64,000 nucleotides of DNA from Bdellovibrio sp. BCCA (GTDB lineage Bacteria > Bdellovibrionota > Bdellovibrionia > Bdellovibrionales > Bdellovibrionaceae). Below the pieces are notes generated by a model. The model did no database searches and had not been told where the DNA came from. It saw only the letters and a program-made list of their open reading frames with translations. This document shows positions 6,836 to 16,793 of this stretch, piece by piece (position 1 is the stretch's first letter; every line of letters begins with the position of its first letter). The DNA lies in contig NZ_JBBNAC010000001.1 of assembly GCF_037996825.1 (NCBI RefSeq), forward strand, positions 2,232,001-2,296,000. Direction: 5' to 3'. Both the position numbers and the translations under genes were made by a program.

Positions 6836-6882
6836 AATCAAAAAAGCAACAGCTTAGAGGAAACTGCCAGTTCCTCTAAGCT
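6836..6882 (-). terminator. rho-independent terminator of the fibre operon
   Basis: A long stem, AGCTTAGAGGAA at 6851-6862 pairing with TTCCTCTAAGCT at 6871-6882 with a short loop. On the minus strand it is followed by GTTGCTTTTTTGA. It ends transcription from the lipoprotein-fibre-small peptide operon at 7027-14987. Apart from this hairpin and a GTTGC/GCAAC pair at 6826-6850 (spacer 15), the gap 6691-7026 shows nothing else. Confidence 0.8.
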
Positions 6883-7026: not shown

Positions 7027-7164
7027 TTATTCATGTTTACTTGCCCGTTCCGAGTTGAATTGCGGGAAGAGCATCGCCCATGTACCCGTCGGTAAGACTC
7101 CTCCCGCCAATGCGAAGTTTGCAATTCCGAAAAAAATAAAAAATGAAATAATAAATTTATTCAT
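7027..7164 (-). CDS. small exported peptide, 45 aa
   Basis: The ATG lies immediately after the fibre stop codon (TAG then TATG). The product starts with a good signal peptide (MNKFIISFFIFFGIANFALA) followed by only 25 residues (GGVLPTGTWAMLFPQFNS and so on). It begins MNKF, similar to the MNNF opening of the fibre, so it could be the leftover start of a duplicated fibre gene that lost its body, or a real small exported partner. It sits before the operon terminator. Confidence 0.5.
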   Translation of the reverse strand: MNKFIISFFIFFGIANFALAGGVLPTGTWAMLFPQFNSERASKHE

Positions 7165-7165
7165 A

Positions 7166-10100
7166 CTACATATCCGAGATATAGCTGACGTAAGCCGTTG
7201 TTCCCGCTTTCAGAATCGTTACCAAAACATGTCCTGACGTATTCGAAATCACGCCACCCGAGCAAGCTGGTGCACATCTCCAAGTAGTAACGCTTGAACC
7301 GGAGAGCGTGTAACTTCCCGTATTCTGAACAATCAACGTATAACTTGTTCCATCTTGCATGTTATTTAGTACCAATGTACCTGCAGCCGCTGTCGTTGCG
7401 ATAACGTTGGCTGTCGAGAAATCGACCGTCAGACTTGATATCGCAGAATAAGCCGTTGTAAGAGATCCACCGGAAACTTGAAGTTTCGAAACTGGAGTGG
7501 TTGTACCGATACCAACACTGCCGGTTGCGCTATCCATGGAAAGTGCGGTCGTAGGTGTAACACCATTATAAAATGTAAAGTTGAGATCGTTTTGCTGAGC
7601 CGCTGTCGTGTATGCGTTGCCTTTACCTTCAATAGCCCAACCTTTGGACGTAGCATCTGCCAGACCAGTGGTATTCCCGTTCAACGTTACGATTTCTAAA
7701 ACCGCTGAATTTGTCGCCCCAGCTCCTCCTGTACCAATAGTCGTACGAACCGTTCCAGAGTTCGCGACATGAAGACGCGAGTTTACATAGGGCGTTGTTC
7801 CGATACCGACGTTGCCGGAAGAATCGATACGCATTTTTTCGAGCCCGCCGTTGGTAAAACCTATTGTCGAGGCCGCTGGACGATAGATTCCTGTCTGGGT
7901 GTCCCCAATAAACGAATAAGGTGGAGTCGTCACTGCAACGCCTGAGGAATTGATCAGAGCGGAGCCTGTTCCTCCCACGCCCTGAATTCCGATGTTGGTA
8001 AACGCAAATCGTTGGGCACCACCAGCAGAAAAGCCAACACTGGATGCCGCGACCGAGTAAAATCCATCGGTGTTTTGACTGGAGAATGTGATGGATGGAA
8101 GAGTTGACGTCCCGGCAGCCGCTTTGAACTGTCCCGTCATCGCAACAGATCCATCTGATTTAAAATCACCGGTGCCCGTCGGAATCGCCGTATTACAAAT
8201 CAATGATCCTGTTCCATCCGATGTACACATTGAGTTGTTCGTAATTCCGCTCACACCAATCAAAGGTACGTTACCGGAAGCTGTTCCTGTATTTTGAATT
8301 GCCGCAGTACCAAGACCTAAATTGGATCTTGCTGCCACAGCCGTGGTGGCTCCTGTACCACCACCCGCGAGCCCCAACGTTCCGAAGGCAGGCGCTGCTG
8401 CTCCTGCAGAAATCAATGCTTGTCCTGAAGTTCCTGCGGCTGTTGTCATGGCTTTACTTCCATCCATATACAAGATTCCACCAGCAGTAACTCCAAGAGA
8501 TCCGTTGTTTGTTCCACCACGAGCGATTGGTAAAACGCCTGATGTTAATTTACTCGTATCATGACTAGGAATCATAGCTGTCGCAAGCAATCCACTCGCA
8601 TCTAGTTTCGCGATTTTATTTGCATCACCTGCGCCACCCGCAGTTCCTGAATTCAAAGTCAAAACTGGAGTTGTCGTAGGCGTTGCAACCGATATATCCG
8701 TGTTAAAACTAGAAACATTCGTCACAGTTCCGCCACCACCAGAGGCCGCAATCGTAATTCCTCCAGAAGAGTTCGTAACCGTAATTCCGGAACCCGCTGT
8801 GATATTGGCTAAAGAAAATCCTGTTCCGTTACCAATCAAAAGCTGTCCATTTGCGGCATTGGCGTCAGGATAACTTACGACTCTCTGTCTTGCTGGAGTG
8901 CTATTTGTCCAATAAAGATTTGTTCCATTGCTTTCAATATTTCCGCCAACGGGAGTTGTGACCAATGATCCAGCTGGAATCCTCATTGGTGAAAGAGCGG
9001 TGGAACCGACTGCTAAAGTCAGCATGCCCGTCATCGTGTCACCAGTTTTCTGAACTGCTCCCGTGATACGCGAGTCATTACCCGCAGCAAAAGTTGTTGC
9101 CGTCGTCCCTTGTAAACTTGAGATCGTAATATCTGTTGGAGCTGCCGCAGAACCCGTGTTGTTTCCTTTTAAAGTGTTCGCAGCCATATTGGCCATCTTC
9201 GCATTTGTCACAGCACCGGCAGAGATAGTCGCCGCTACGGAACCAGATCCACTAGCAGTCACATCTCCCGTCAGAGTTGTGATTCCTGCGCTTGGAATCG
9301 CAGTATTACAGATAATTGATCCCGTTCCATCTGACGTACACATCATGTTGTTCGTAATCCCACTCACACCGATCAAAGGAACGGTACCTGAAGATGATCC
9401 TGTGTTTTTAGTTGCCGCAGTACCAAGACCTAAATTTGTTTGTGCTGCTACAGCTGTCGTCGCACCAGTACCACCGTTTGCGATTGGCAATGCGCCAGAA
9501 ACATCAGTCGTTAAGCTCACAGAATTACCACCAGAGAGAACACCTGCTGCCGTATTCTTCACAAAACCAGCCGTACTCATTCCAGACAAAGTCATACCTG
9601 TGAACGTCGGACTTGCTGCTGTATGAATATTCTGAGGAGTGGAAAGTGTAATCGCATTTGCGGCATTCGTAACAGTGATCTGATTAGCTGTTCCGTTAAC
9701 CGTCTTATATTCATAAGCAGTTCCAGCAGCGTTCATTCCCAGCATCTGATTTGCAGTACCCAACGATGAAAGGCCTGCTAGAGAGATTGCCGGAGTTGTG
9801 CCACCAGTTGAACTTAATGGCAAAGTCGCAGTGACATTGGTCACTGTTCCGCCACCACCAGAAGCAGCAATCGTGATTCCTCCGGAAGAGTTCGTCACTG
9901 TAATTCCGGAACCTGCTGTGATGTTAGCTAAAGAGAAGCCAGTTCCGTTACCAATAAGAAGTTGGCCGTTCGCCGCATTGGCGTCGGGATAACTTACAAC
10001 TCTTTGCCTTGCTGGCGTGCTATTTGTCCAATACAGATTTGTTCCGTTGCTTTCGATATTACCACTAACTGGAGTTGTCACCAAAGCTCCCGCAGGGATT

Positions 10101-13100
10101 CTCATCGGAGAAAGCGTTGTTGTACCAGTTGCCAACGTCAGCATGCCCGTCATTGTGCCACCGGAAGTTTGCAATGCGCCTGGCGCCGTCTGAGCCTGGC
10201 ACGCAAAACCAGCTGCTGTCCATGTCGGAACGTGCCCTACTGTCGAGCAAGCAAATTCATAAAATTTGTTCGTACTATCCACCATGGCAAATCCAGTTGT
10301 CGCCGTATTCACACCTGTGAAATTCAAATCAGAACCGAGAATAGTTCCATCTAAAATTTTTCCTGTTGTTACTGCGTTCGCCGCAATTGTCGCTGCTGCA
10401 GAGCCTGGACCGGAAGCAGTGACATCACCGGTAAGGGCTGTCACGTAATTGCCACCAGCTTGTTTTGTATTAAAGGTATTCCAATCCGTTGAACTAAGAT
10501 AACCATCCGTTGAAGTAGTAGCCTGAGCAATTGTGATATTCGGAGTTGCACCACCGCTTGAGGAAAGCGGTGCTCCCGCAGTAACACTGGTTACACCACC
10601 AGCACTAGAGATCCATGAGAGATTTCCTGAGGCATCCGACTGAAGCATTTGATTTGCAGTTGGAGGATTTGTTGGCAATGTCAGTGTATAAGCAGCCGTT
10701 AATGTCCCAGGCGATTTAATATAGACACTTTCAGGACCCGTAGTATCTTTTAACTTGATACCTTTCGTTGCACTGAACGTTAAATCTCCTGTCATCGTGT
10801 CTCCGGCGATATTCACGGGAGTAAAACCTAAAGCCGTTGTTACATCGGAAGAACCAATATTGGCCCCCGTCGTGACACGACCTTTTGCATCCACTGTGAC
10901 TTTGGAATAAGTTCCTGCAGTTACACCCGAGTTTGCGAGTGTCAGGGCGCCCGTATTTGAAATCGTCGCATCACCTGACATTGTTTGTGCAACTGCTGCA
11001 TTCGTTCCATCACCAATCCAGATTTTTCCGTTAGCAAGTGAAGGTAGAAGTGGCGTTGGTGCCTGACACGCCCAACCTGTTGCTGTCCATGTGGCTACAT
11101 TACCAGTCGTTCCGCAAGCGAAATCAAAAAACTTTCCTGTGCTGTCTTTGATAACCAACCCAGATGTGGCAGTATTGACTCCGCTGTAATTTAGATCCGC
11201 ACCAACGATAGTACCATCTAAAATTTTTCCCGATGTCACAGCATTCGCAGCAATCGTCCCGGCAACGGATCCAGGACCCGTCGCAGTTACATCACCCGTC
11301 AATGCCGTGAGATAATTTCCTGCAGGTTGTTTCGTATTAAACGCGTCGTAATCTGTTTTACTTAAAAGACCGGCCGTCGTTCCTGCAGTCGACGCCATGG
11401 GAATATTCAAAGTATGAGTGTCAGATGCTGAAGACCATCCAGGAGAAGGTCCTGTTGTTCCAATTGCAAATCCTTGTGTTGAACCTGTTTGCCCACCAAG
11501 AGACGTCAAACCAGCACCAGAGATACCTAAAGCTTTTACGGCGGCTCCATCCCAGTATTTCACTTGGCCTGTTGTCGTATTAAACCAAGTTTTACCTTTA
11601 TCTCCAGCACCATATCCAGCAACAAGAGTCCCTTCGGTTGCATTCGTATAATTAGCTAGACCAATACTGCCAGTCATCACGTCACCCGATTTATTGAGTG
11701 GCGTGTAACCTAAAGCTGTCGTCACATCAGACGACCCAATATTCGTCCCCGTCGTGACACGACCTTTCGTATCCACTGTGACTTTGGAATAAGTTCCCGC
11801 TGTGACACCAGAGTTTGCTAACGTTGTCGTCAATGATCCCGCTGTTGACGTCACATCTCCTGTCAGAGCCGGCATACGCGCCGCTGCCAAAGTTCCTGTT
11901 GCGTCTGCAGTTCCAAGATCTACTGCATTTTTTGTCGCCAAAGAACCCAAACCTGTAATATCAGAATTTGCAAGTTGTGCAGCAACCCATGCTGATCCAC
12001 TCCAACGAAGCGTTTGTCCTGTTGTTGAACCATTTGAAATAGAAATAACAGGAGCTGCACCTCCAGAACTTGCAAGCGGCGCCGTTGCCGTAACGCCAGT
12101 CACAGTTCCTGTTCCAGCATTATCAGTTCCGCAAATCCAACCTGTGCCATTCCATTTTAAAATTTCGTTATTCGCACAAGCCATGTTGTTAGGTTTATAA
12201 GAAAGATATTGTCCTGCAGCTGAAGACACATGATCCACACGAACATTATTTACAGTTACAACACCCGCGTTATCAATCGCAGCATCTCCTGACATCGTTT
12301 GGGCAGTTGCTGCATTTGTACCATCACCGATCCAAATTTTTCCACTGGCTAATGAAGGCAAAAGTGGTACCGGGGCCTGACACGCAAAACCCGTCGCGGT
12401 CCATGTAGGAACATGCCCCGTAGTCGCACACGCAAAGTTAAAAAACTTTCCAGTGGAATCAACAACCGCAATTCCTGATGTCGCCGTATTCACACCGGTG
12501 AAATTCAAATCGGAACCCAGAATAGTTCCGTCCAAAATTTTTCCCGACGTGACAACACCAGTTCCGAGGGTCATGGCTCCTGTATTGGAAATTGTTGCAT
12601 CTCCACTAAGAGAAACCTCTTGCGCCTTGCCCGCTCCGTCACCAACCCAAATTTTAGTATCAGCTAAATTCGCGGAGTTAGAAACTGCGTCTAGCTTTGA
12701 ATTAAATGTCGACCAATCCGACGAAGTTAAAAGACCACGGTTTGTGCTAGATGCACTTGGCAAATTAAACGTATGTACTGTTCCTGAAGAAGAAATACCA
12801 AAATCAGTACCTGTAGAACCTGTTGCGAATGTCTGTGTTGATCCATTTAAACCATTCATACTTTGCAGACCAGAGCCAGCCGCTCCTAATGCAATCGCCG
12901 CAGTTCCATTCCAATATTTAATTTCATTGGTATCAGTGCGATACCACATTTTACCGTTGTCGCCTGCACCTAAACCTGTTGGGTCCGATGTTACGGCATT
13001 TAAACCCAAAGGACCTGCCATGACATCACCGGCTTTGTCTAATGGCGTATATCCAAGAGCTGTCATCACATCCGCTGATCCAATATTCGCACCGGCTGTC

Positions 13101-14722
13101 ACCCGCCCTTTGGCATCGACAGTCACTTTTGAATAAGTTCCCGCCGTGACACCGGAGTTTGAAAGCGTTAAAACGCCAGCATTGGAAAGTGTGGCGTCTC
13201 CAGTTAGATTTTGTTCTTGCGCTTTGTTTGTTCCATCACCAATCCAAATTTTTCCATCGCTCAAGGTCGTATTATTAGCGACGTCAGCTGTACCGCAAAC
13301 CCAATCAGTGCCGTTGTACTTAAGGATCTCCCCCACCGCGCACGTTTTTGCGATAAAGTTTTTCGCAGAACTTCCGTCCCAATATTTAACGGTGTTGGTC
13401 GTTGAATTGTACCAGATCTTTCCCGCATCTGCGGCAGTTAAGCCTGTCGGATCCGAAGCGTTATTGGAAAGATGCAAGGACTTTCCAGCATTCATCGTGA
13501 TGTAACCTGTATAAAGCAGATTATTTCCCGACATATTGATATCACCAGAAAGAGTTCCCCCCGAAAGTGGTAACTTTGTCGTGTCATTTACAGTAATGCC
13601 TGTCACAGCCACAACTCGGCCTTGAGCATCTACTTGCAATTGCGGAATCGTATTGGCCGAGCCATAAGTTCCCGCTGTAACCCCCGTCGCACTCAAAGCA
13701 GAACAAACAAATGAATCAGAAGCAGAACTCCATATTAAAAACTCATTGAGCCCGCAAGAAGATGCAGGCCAAGGACTTGTCGAATTGGCGTTCGTCATGT
13801 CTGTATAATTCATTTTTTGAGCGACCCAAGCACTGCCATCCCAGCGAAGTGTCTGTCCAGCTACAGCGCCTGCACTAAGAGAAATAACAGGCGTTCCTCC
13901 GCCACTGCTGTTTAGTGGCGATTGTGCGGTGACTGAAGTCACCGTCCCGACACCCGCGTTATCGGTAGCACAAGCCCAAGCAGAACCATTCCATTTTAAA
14001 ATTTCGTTGTTGGCACAATTAAGCCCCGCAATTCCCGAAATGGGTGAAGGCACGCTTGTCAGTGCACTCCAAGGAACATTTGTAAGACTTGCGCCATCTT
14101 TAGGATCATATGAAGTGAATCCACTTCCATTCCATACAATACCTTGGTTTGTGGATGTGATCACTTTATCGAAATAATCTTCAAGCAACGCCTGGCTGAT
14201 TTTCGGTGATGTTTGAATAAACTCACTCGCCGATTTCCCCTCGAGCCTTTCCGATTCAATAGCAAACGCCGTAGCGCGAATATTAAAGTCCACGTCGATT
14301 GTGTCGGAATAAGCATTAAAAATAAGGCGAAGGCGTCTGCCATCCTGCTCACCGGCTGTCGGAGTATACGTACAAGTTCCTACTCCTCCAGAAACGGAGT
14401 TTAAATTAGGTTTAGACGTTTTATTATTGAACACCGAGCCCATCGTAAAACCTGGATCTCCGGCACTGCGAGCTCCCCCGCCCACGACCAAGTTCAAATA
14501 CCCTTCCGTCACATTTATGCTGGCATGAGTCTCGTCATACAAAATACAATCATTGGGAGACAATACTTGGAGTCGAAGCGGGACTCCAGTGACACTCAAC
14601 GGATTGCCATTAGGTTGTTTAATATAAGCCTGAAACGTCATGCCCTTATGAGTCTGAGCGTAGACATACTGAGGAAATAGGGCGACAAGGACGACCAAAA
14701 AACTCCAAATGAAGTTATTCAT
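7166..14722 (-). CDS. giant secreted fibre protein, MAT-like (mosaic adhesive trimer)
   Basis: About 2,518 residues. I choose the ATG at 14722 because GGAGGGAG lies 7 bases before it and a signal peptide follows ([22 protein letters not shown]); the frame opens 9 codons earlier. After a unique N-terminal domain (to about 170) the body is built of tail-fibre-like repeats rich in Gly, Ser, Thr and Ala: four [10 protein letters not shown]-type units, several [12 protein letters not shown] units, TALGYTPL units, and SSGG-TP-ISL units. Two blocks of about 93 residues are nearly identical. Near the C-terminus come two VGIGTT-P-L-V motifs, typical of trimeric tail-fibre necks, and a last roughly 90 residues with WRCAPAC that look like a tip domain. 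No S74 auto-cleavage domain was recognised. Bdellovibrio MAT fibres have this architecture and bind prey. The gene overlaps the lipoprotein gene upstream by 8 bases. Confidence 0.85.
8713..8995 (-). repeat. fibre gene internal repeat block, copy B
   Basis: Encodes about 93 residues (SPMRIPAG through GGGGTVTNV, including [20 protein letters not shown]) that are almost identical to those encoded at 9834-10110. The DNA copies differ mainly at third codon positions, so the duplication is not recent or is under selection at protein level. Ends are approximate. Confidence 0.8.
9834..10110 (-). repeat. fibre gene internal repeat block, copy A
   Basis: Partner of the block at 8713-8995, about 1.1 kb apart. 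Such long near-identical segments allow homologous recombination that would shorten or lengthen the fibre without breaking the frame. Ends are approximate. Confidence 0.8.
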
Positions 14723-14987
14723 AAAAGACTCCCTCCACTTGATATCCATTCGCCAATTTCTTTTTTTGCGCTAATTCGTTCCAGGTTCCTTGAATCTTGT
14801 ACCCTGAAGCCGTCGTAATGAATTCGGTCTGAGTCATCTCCGCTTGACCACTTTTAGTTTGTTTGTGGTCACTTTCTTCTGCTGTTTTACTTAAATTCGA
14901 GATGGAAGCATCAAGGCCGCATCCAGATAAAAGGAGCCCTTGAGCTGATAGAAATAGAGTCATAATTTTTAAAGCTGTTCTTTTCAT
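14715..14987 (-). CDS. small lipoprotein, partner of the fibre
   Basis: 90 residues with a lipoprotein signal (charged MKRTALK, hydrophobic core, lipobox LLSGC with Cys23). The mature part is mostly polar (Lys, Glu, Gln, Thr) with no recognised domain. Its last codons overlap the fibre start, and the fibre ribosome site lies inside this gene, so the two are translationally coupled. I infer a role in anchoring, export or assembly of the fibre. A start ribosome site (GGTGG) precedes the ATG. Confidence 0.75.
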
Positions 14988-15276: not shown

Positions 15277-16035
15277 ATGGATTTATCGGTACTTTTAAAA
15301 AGCGAATTCGAAAAAAGAAAAAGCAAGAATACAAGATACAGCCTAAGAGCATTCGCAAAAAGTTTGAATATCGAAGCTGGTGCTCTTCTTCGCATCATGA
15401 CCAATAAGCGTTTGGCGACCCATGCAACGGCGGTGACACTTTTAAAAAATTTAAACACCCCAGCAACCGTTCAAACCGATATTTTAAATGAGCTTGAAAA
15501 CCGTAGAAAAAATTCTTCCAGACCAAGCAAGAAAAATGGAATGCAGTCATTTTCTGTCCAAGAGTTCGAAACCTACTTTGATATTCTCCACATTCACACG
15601 ATGGAATCACTGAACTTGCTTCAATTTAGAAGCACTCGTCAAACACCGGCTCTTGCCGAATCACTGGGTGTTTCTCTCATTCAACTCAATGAAGTGATTA
15701 ATCAACTGATTGGAATAGGCGCCGTCCGCATTGTCGGAGATCAATTTGAAGTTTTGTATAAATCCTTTTCAACAGTACCCCTTGGGTTCACAAGTGAGAA
15801 AAGGAAAAACTTGCAAAAAGAATTTTTAAAAAAAGCCCATGACGCTATCGATTTAGTTCCTTTTGAACTGAGAGATCACAGCACCCTCACGATTCCGGTC
15901 TCGGAAAAGGATTTAAACGCCATAAAGGCCATCTTAAAGCGCGCGCGAGCACGCATTAATGGAATTTCTGAAAAGCGTACGAAGCGTGATCAACTTTATA
16001 ATGTTAGCTTAGCTCTCTATCCGGTGGTATTATGA
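15277..16035 (+). CDS. TIGR02147-family regulator-like protein, 252 aa
   Basis: Intact member of the TIGR02147 family. The N-terminal third (MDLSVLLKSEFEKRKSKNTRYSLRAF then LNIEAGALLRIMTNKRLAT) carries the helix-turn-helix-like family start. The middle (residues about 95-165) is a winged-helix-like domain (TPALAESLGVSLIQLNEVINQLIGIGAV). The end carries the conserved SEKDLNAIKAILKRARARI and a final strand. Length is normal for the family. The gene overlaps the next by 4 bases (ATGA), so the exported protein is its likely partner or target. A GTTGC dyad upstream could mean autoregulation. Function of the family is not settled; a cytoplasmic regulator is the usual assumption. Confidence 0.8.
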   Translation: MDLSVLLKSEFEKRKSKNTRYSLRAFAKSLNIEAGALLRIMTNKRLATHATAVTLLKNLNTPATVQTDILNELENRRKNSSRPSKKNGMQSFSVQEFETYFDILHIHTMESLNLLQFRSTRQTPALAESLGVSLIQLNEVINQLIGIGAVRIVGDQFEVLYKSFSTVPLGFTSEKRKNLQKEFLKKAHDAIDLVPFELRDHSTLTIPVSEKDLNAIKAILKRARARINGISEKRTKRDQLYNVSLALYPVVL

Positions 16036-16793
16036 AGAAAATAATCTTAACTTTACTATTTAGTTTTTTGCTTCCAACAACATCCTTCGCCTATATTCGT
16101 AATGGCACCGAAACAAACGGCGGCGACGGATTTGTCGCAGACTTCTATAGAGTCCTTGATAATACTATTAAAATACTGAATTCAAAATCATTAGAAGATA
16201 TTGAGCAGGTCCAACTGATTGAAATAAAGAAGCAAAGATCAAATTTAGACGTTATTTCCGCTCCTTCTGTATTTTTAAATGATAAAGAACTCAGTGCCAT
16301 CAACAATCCTTACTTCTCTCCTCCAAGAATTACTATTTCTCAAAAGTTCTGGCAGGGATTTTCGGAAGAGCAAAAAATCCAACTTGTATTGCATGAAATG
16401 CTTCCTGTAGTTGGTTTCTCTGACCACGATTATAAATTTTCCGGAGCACTCATGGCTAAGATCTTACCTTCAAGTCAAGATCTCGCGACGATCTACGATC
16501 TCATTGACACCTGTTCTTTGTCCCGTATTGATTCGTTCGATATGAATACTTTGAAATTCGCAAAGAAATTAAATTACCTGATTCATTCTGCAGCACTCAA
16601 AGGCTGCGGCACTTTCGTAAAGAAAGCAGTGCAAAGTGGATGGGATATAGATTATTGCTGGAAACAAAAAACATCATATCAAGATCTAGATGCAACAGCC
16701 TTCAACTCTCCAGATCAGCTTTTCGTAAAGTGGACAACTTTAGACGTTTTAAAATCGTTGGGCGCAAACCCTCTCAAAATTTGCACGGAGTAA
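16032..16793 (+). CDS. secreted hypothetical protein of the NGGD / HE-L type, 253 aa
   Basis: Signal peptide cleaved near residue 20 (PTTSFA). The mature protein starts with NGTETNGGDGFVADFYR and later has LVLHEMLPVVGFSDHDY around residue 120-140. Similar NGGD and LHE-L-G-D-x-x-Y motifs occur, as I recall, in other exported Bdellovibrio proteins of unknown function. The HE pair resembles a metallopeptidase helix, but the second His is not in the HExxH place, so I do not call it a peptidase. Four or five Cys in the C-terminal half. It is translationally coupled to the TIGR02147 gene. Confidence 0.7.
   Translation: MKKIILTLLFSFLLPTTSFAYIRNGTETNGGDGFVADFYRVLDNTIKILNSKSLEDIEQVQLIEIKKQRSNLDVISAPSVFLNDKELSAINNPYFSPPRITISQKFWQGFSEEQKIQLVLHEMLPVVGFSDHDYKFSGALMAKILPSSQDLATIYDLIDTCSLSRIDSFDMNTLKFAKKLNYLIHSAALKGCGTFVKKAVQSGWDIDYCWKQKTSYQDLDATAFNSPDQLFVKWTTLDVLKSLGANPLKICTE

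What the first reader, a model, noticed from the sequence alone, without database searches (positions are those of the whole stretch)
7027..14987. Three-gene fibre operon: lipoprotein, giant MAT-like fibre, 45-residue exported peptide
A 90-residue lipoprotein, a fibre of about 2,518 residues and a tiny exported peptide are packed with overlaps and closed by one strong terminator. The fibre carries tail-fibre repeats and a WRCAPAC tip region. MAT-type fibres of Bdellovibrio recognise prey. The lipoprotein partner and the peptide with a second MNKF-type signal are the less described parts and may be needed for fibre export or anchoring.
Basis: partly seen in the sequence, partly recalled or inferred. 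Interest (0 to 1): 0.75.

Follow-up and report, generated by a model that had tools for sequence, protein, structure and literature searches.

The report
Predator fibre with paired lipoprotein partner
A giant surface fibre of a predatory Bdellovibrio is made together with a small fatty-anchored protein, and the same pairing recurs in many related species, so this undescribed protein is a good candidate for the missing part that holds prey-recognition fibres on the cell.

Summary
Confirmed: a 90-aa lipoprotein and a 2,518-aa fibre overlap by 8 nt on the minus strand. The fibre is a genuine MAT fibre (NCBIfam Bdello_MAT_N, 108.5 bits, cut-off 60) of the non-S74 kind. The third 'gene' is not one: the 45-aa ORF is a frameshifted, internally deleted relic of an RCC1-repeat gene.

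The lipoprotein is the new part. A profile of it gives 43 hits in 23 of 66 Bdellovibrionaceae genomes; 32 lie directly upstream of a MAT N-domain. 23 of the 26 closest pairs share exactly the same 8-nt stop/start overlap. Lipoprotein divergence tracks the MAT N-domain (r about 0.8-0.9), not the fibre tip (r about 0). A distant relative sits in canonical MAT arrays: it is in 20 of the 21 Bdellovibrio genomes with canonical MATs and none of the 3 without.

The family has no informative Pfam, NCBIfam or PDB match, and I found no paper on it. Best reading: a dedicated outer-membrane lipoprotein that docks the conserved MAT N-domain, the 'surface element' that the MAT paper left unidentified. Genetic pairing is shown; physical docking, and anchoring as opposed to export help, are inferred.

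The parts
14715..14987 (-). 90-aa lipoprotein gene (MAT-associated lipoprotein): signal peptide, lipobox LSGC with Cys23, about 30-residue linker, two beta-prone repeats [10 protein letters not shown] (62-71) and [10 protein letters not shown] (81-90)
14715..14722 (-). 8-nt stop/start overlap ATGAATAA between lipoprotein and fibre; ATG at the same -8 position in 23 of 26 class-1 modules
7166..14722 (-). MAT fibre gene, 2,518 aa, signal peptide, non-S74 type
14207..14689 (-). MAT N-terminal base domain, residues 12-172 (NCBIfam NF053851, 108.5 bits); beta-sandwich model
7490..14206 (-). fibre stalk built of tail-fibre-like modules, some shared at up to 98% identity with neighbouring paralogues
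7169..7489 (-). C-terminal tip (residues 2412-2518) with WRCAPAC; member of a non-S74 tip family shared with five other lipoprotein-paired MAT fibres
7027..7164 (-). 45-codon ORF: 5' relic of an RCC1-repeat secreted-protein gene (not a functional third gene)
7037..7087 (-). 3' end of the same RCC1 relic in another frame: GYMGDALPAIQLGTGK*
6851..6882 (-). intrinsic-terminator-like hairpin (12-bp stem, T run)
   Evidence: consensus match only

Best explanation
A two-gene module. The first gene makes a small lipoprotein that is exported, lipidated at Cys23 and placed in the outer membrane. The second makes a trimeric MAT adhesion fibre. Translation is coupled by the 8-nt overlap, so both are made together. 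The lipoprotein's beta-prone C-terminal repeats bind the conserved MAT N-terminal base domain and hold the fibre on the outer membrane, with the tip pointing at prey. Each divergent N-domain type carries its own cognate lipoprotein; canonical MATs share one array-linked lipoprotein in trans. Shown: pairing, overlap, co-divergence with the N-domain and not with the tip, lipobox, MAT membership. Inferred: outer-membrane location, direct binding, anchoring as the role, sharing in trans.
For: 43 profile hits in 66 family genomes, 32 directly 5' of a MAT N-domain, where a chance gene would have a MAT next to it well under 1% of the time (about 25 MATs per genome). ATG at -8 in 23 of 26 class-1 modules. 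Lipoprotein versus N-domain distances r = 0.81-0.89 (0 of 2000 permutations), within-genome r = 0.94 (29 of 5000), versus tip r = -0.01. Lipoprotein label clustered on the N-domain tree, 4 changes against 19.1 shuffled. Array-linked relative in 20 of 21 genomes with canonical MATs and 0 of 3 without, directly behind an S74-type fibre in 15 of 20. Lipobox followed by Gly/Ser at +2, which in enterobacteria sends lipoproteins to the outer membrane (general knowledge, untested in Bdellovibrio). The MAT paper predicts an unidentified surface element that binds the N-domain (PMC10769870).
Against: No physical interaction was tested; the lipoprotein model is poor (pLDDT 64). Profile comparison shows no similarity or other link between lipoprotein and N-domain. 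Part of the co-divergence could come from linkage, since the N-domain is the part of the fibre next to the lipoprotein. Several class-1 MATs lack a lipoprotein upstream (L139, L141, L145, L149, L152), 24 of 28 MATs in this genome have none directly upstream, G018 has canonical MATs without a detected array lipoprotein, and a few lipoproteins (G004, G024, G067:C156) have no MAT nearby.
Confidence: 0.58

Rival explanations
1. The lipoprotein is an export or trimerisation helper, not a lasting anchor. It meets the fibre in the periplasm and helps it fold, trimerise or cross the outer membrane, as SadB does for the trimeric autotransporter SadA.
For: Same operon logic (small lipoprotein co-encoded with a giant trimeric adhesin) and a published precedent, PMC3953254. 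How MAT fibres cross the outer membrane is unknown. All the pairing evidence fits equally well.
Against: SadB-like helpers have a folded trimeric domain; here the mature part is only 64-78 aa and is mostly predicted as linker plus a hairpin. Co-divergence is with the base domain that should stay at the cell surface.
Confidence: 0.27
2. The lipoprotein has no contact with the fibre. It is a neighbour kept for another reason, such as a translational leader that sets fibre expression through the overlap, or an independent envelope protein co-expressed during predation.
For: The 8-nt overlap is itself strongly conserved and could serve coupling alone. Some family members stand away from any MAT.
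Against: The lipoprotein sequence co-varies with the N-domain among modules of one genome, and conserved residues lie outside the overlap (Cys23, Glu55, Glu71, Gly86). Order can be reversed or separated while staying in MAT clusters (L196, L188, arrays), which a leader role does not predict.
Confidence: 0.12
3. The three genes form one functional operon and the 45-aa exported peptide is a third component of fibre display.
For: Good signal peptide; 1 nt after the fibre stop; before the terminator-like site.
Against: Relic of an RCC1-repeat gene with both ends recognisable in different frames. No counterpart was found behind other lipoprotein-MAT modules.
Confidence: 0.03

Closest known systems
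MAT (mosaic adhesive trimer) fibres of Bdellovibrio bacteriovorus HD100 (PMC10769870; NCBIfam NF053851)
   Same: Signal peptide, conserved N-terminal domain above the curated cut-off, tail-fibre-like stalk, variable C-terminal tip; non-S74 subgroup.
   Different: 2,518 aa against about 1,000 aa as typical; divergent N-domain class; co-encoded with a cognate lipoprotein, which that paper's main text does not mention.
SadB-SadA of Salmonella (PMC3953254)
   Same: Lipoprotein encoded in one operon with a giant trimeric adhesin. Works-like candidate only.
   Different: SadA is a type V trimeric autotransporter with its own membrane barrel; SadB has a MATH-like domain. Neither was seen here; no membership is claimed.
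FAD-I and RadD operon of Fusobacterium (PMC7023056)
   Same: Small lipoprotein encoded with a large adhesin (abstract).
   Different: RadD is a different kind of adhesin; no sequence relation was tested.
Phage tail fibre family phrog_7389
   Same: Stalk residues 937-1001 match, whole-protein E 1.3e-14.
   Different: Chromosomal, Sec-exported, with a MAT base domain; no phage genes were seen among the neighbouring genes examined.

Membership tests
MAT fibre superfamily | Conserved beta-rich N-terminal domain of about 130 aa after the signal peptide | tested here: met
   NF053851 at residues 12-172, 108.5 bits against cut-off 60; beta-sandwich model
MAT fibre superfamily | C-terminal S74 chaperone/protease domain (S74 subgroup) or another tip (NS74 subgroup) | tested here: met
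   No S74 match in Pfam; tip aligns with five other MAT tips, so NS74
MAT fibre superfamily | Forms trimeric fibres displayed on the predator surface | not testable with these tools
   No complex prediction or experiment available
MAT-associated lipoprotein family (proposed here) | Lipobox Cys plus the C-terminal repeat profile A1 | tested here: met
   Cys23; window protein and relatives align with invariant C23, E55, G86, Y89
MAT-associated lipoprotein family (proposed here) | Genomic pairing with a MAT N-domain | tested here: met
   32 of 43 hits directly upstream of a MAT
MAT-associated lipoprotein family (proposed here) | Physical binding to the MAT N-domain | not testable with these tools
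   No complex prediction or binding assay available
Known lipoprotein families (Pfam, NCBIfam, PDB) | Match to a curated family or solved structure | tested here: not met
   No NCBIfam match for any of 16 members at E<=0.01; one of 16 hits DUF3953 at 0.0046 in Pfam; PDB best E 0.69
SadB-type trimeric-autotransporter lipoproteins | Partner is a type V autotransporter; lipoprotein has a MATH-like trimer domain | not tested
   Used as an analogy for function only

The most novel reading that the evidence does not exclude
These lipoproteins are the missing outer-membrane docking system of the MAT repertoire. Each N-domain class pairs with its own cognate lipoprotein, giving separate docking channels (perhaps poles or stages), while one array-linked lipoprotein serves all canonical MATs in trans. 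New fibres become usable by moving lipoprotein plus base domain as a unit and swapping tips.
Probability: 0.35. Interest if true: 0.82.

Novelty: new variant of a known kind. Interest (0 to 1): 0.68.

Why it matters
The 2024 MAT paper showed that Bdellovibrio carries many prey-recognition fibres but left open what holds their conserved base on the predator surface. A small, uncharacterised lipoprotein family is genetically tied to the MAT base domain across the genus, and its array-linked form is present in nearly every Bdellovibrio genome with canonical MATs and in none of the three without. That makes the question directly testable with a single gene deletion or a pull-down.

Tried and rejected
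Strand mimicry between the lipoprotein repeats and the first strand of the MAT domain: suggested by eye, no profile-profile support. Peptide as a third operon member: rejected as a relic. Phage origin of the locus: no phage genes seen among the neighbouring genes examined. Rfam scan of the window: nothing. PDB sequence relatives of fibre, tip and lipoprotein: none significant. N-domain fold: Foldseek no match at E<=0.001; VIA-align best Z 6.7 to macroglobulin/Ig-like sandwiches, not discriminating. First genome-contig query failed as too variable and was repeated with a tighter alignment. Papers: none found that describes the lipoprotein; most subscription papers and all supplements were not searchable. 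A first attempt to hand in this report was malformed.

Full report
What is there. On the minus strand a 90-codon lipoprotein gene (14715-14987) is followed by a 2,518-codon fibre gene (7166-14722); the fibre ATG lies inside the last codons of the lipoprotein (ATGAATAA), an 8-nt overlap. The 45-codon ORF (7027-7164) starts 1 nt after the fibre stop. A terminator-like hairpin lies at 6882-6851, but such sites are no commoner here than in shuffled sequence.

The fibre is a MAT fibre. NCBIfam NF053851 (Bdello_MAT_N) matches residues 12-172 at 108.5 bits against a cut-off of 60. The stalk matches a phage tail-fibre PHROG. There is no S74 domain. The tip with WRCAPAC aligns at 24-44% with the tips of five other MAT fibres that are paired with a lipoprotein, so it is an ordinary non-S74 tip. 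The genome has about 28 MAT N-domains, and NF053851 is found in 103 of 141 genomes of the order.

The third gene is a relic. Its first 31 residues match the start of an RCC1-repeat secreted protein elsewhere in the genome (58%, E 3e-7). Downstream, in another frame, the same DNA reads GYMGDALPAIQLGTGK followed by a stop, which corresponds to the end of that protein (GEMGDALPAVSLGTSK). The simplest account is an internal deletion that joined the two ends out of frame. A search with the RCC1 protein finds only the 31-residue start at this locus.

The lipoprotein is a recurrent MAT partner. A single-sequence search that ignored neighbours already found relatives lying beside MAT genes. A profile (A1) over 66 Bdellovibrionaceae genomes gave 43 hits at E<=1e-6 in 23 genomes. 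32 lie directly 5' of a MAT N-domain on the same strand, with 44-87 nt between the lipoprotein stop and the domain; one is cut by a contig end; four have a MAT within about 5 kb on the same strand; two follow MAT arrays; four have none in the fetched DNA. Starting instead from MATs, roughly 10 of 17 class-1 MATs with enough upstream DNA have it; second members of tandem pairs and some single genes lack it. The most distant case, L151 from Bdellovibrionales RIFCSPHIGHO2, still has a 96-aa lipoprotein with two NGWT repeats overlapping the fibre.

Overlap and co-divergence. In 23 of 26 class-1 modules the MAT ATG sits exactly at -8. This explains part of the conserved terminal YE but not the rest of the conservation, so the last three residues were dropped before distances were compared. 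Lipoprotein and N-domain distances correlate at 0.89 (all 33 modules), 0.87 (27 thinned) and 0.81 (21 class 1), with 0 of 2000 permutations as high. Among modules of one genome, where species history cannot contribute, r is 0.94 (15 pairs, 29 of 5000). Lipoprotein against the last 160 residues of the fibre gives -0.01 in 17 modules. The lipoprotein therefore travels with the base domain while tips are exchanged. Linkage alone could give part of this, since the base domain is the nearest part of the fibre. On an N-domain tree the label 'has lipoprotein' needs 4 changes against 19.1 in shuffles.

Canonical MATs. In the window's genome only 4 of 28 MATs have a lipoprotein directly upstream, all with divergent N-domains; the other 24 have none. 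A distant relative (99 aa, CSMEASLEQL, tandem repeats) sits behind a MAT array. It is present in 20 of 24 Bdellovibrio genomes, directly 3' of an S74-type fibre (judged by its GFIAQE-like motif) in 15 of these 20, and in three of them a further MAT follows directly. It is found in 20 of the 21 genomes with canonical MATs (best NF053851 E below 1e-55) and in none of the three without (G004, G008, G017; hypergeometric p about 0.002 by hand, ignoring relatedness). G021 has kept the lipoprotein but has no array at that place. Serving canonical MATs in trans is an inference from this.

Structure. The N-domain is predicted as a beta-sandwich (mean pLDDT 76, 85 or more for residues 31-110), with only non-specific macroglobulin/Ig-like resemblance to solved structures, in line with the MAT paper. 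The lipoprotein is predicted poorly (pLDDT 64): a signal helix and a short hairpin, compatible with a tail that folds on a partner, but not evidence for it.

Mechanism. Most likely an outer-membrane lipoprotein that docks the MAT base domain. [quoted passage not shown] The main rival is assembly or export help, as for SadB with SadA (PMC3953254). The data here show a genetic partnership; they do not tell anchor from helper.

Novelty. The fibre is a new member of a known family. The lipoprotein family has no informative match in Pfam, NCBIfam or PDB, and I found no paper on it in the library searched. A MAT fibre with a cognate lipoprotein is a new variant of a known kind.

Noticed in passing
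window 15277-16035 and 16032-16793 (+); also L115 5442-6227/6142-7113 and L205 5980-6771/6752-7444: Recurrent pair: a TIGR02147-family regulator overlapping a secreted protein with an NGGD-like motif near its start. It stands divergent to the lipoprotein-fibre operon here and beside the RCC1 gene and a lipoprotein-MAT module elsewhere.
   Followed up: partly
G000:C1:2184000-2247000 (window fibre and the loci before the window): Cluster of giant MAT fibres that share stalk segments at up to 98% identity, suggesting recent exchange of stalk modules.
   Followed up: no
G000:C1:3142987-3145857 (-), L115: Secreted RCC1-repeat protein of about 890 aa with many near-identical repeats; its collapsed relative is the stub behind the window fibre.
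   Followed up: partly
G020:C1, L130: A lipoprotein-paired MAT fibre of about 3,490 aa from its base domain, longer than the window's.
   Followed up: no
G000:C1:617285-617554 (-), L121/L248; G007 L247: A second array-type lipoprotein (SMEASLEQL) with no MAT nearby, conserved beside the same PilZ-like or regulatory neighbour in two genomes. Its role is unknown.
   Followed up: partly
G000 L088 and L089 (MATs at 2205077 and 3029480, -): Two very divergent MATs are preceded by larger lipoproteins (181 and 188 aa); the second ends in a similar two-strand repeat (GTGLILHGRVRS...GGFTLKGRITQ).
   Followed up: partly
L134, L188, L196 (G009): In one genome the order is reversed: MAT first, lipoprotein directly behind it or one gene later.
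   Followed up: partly
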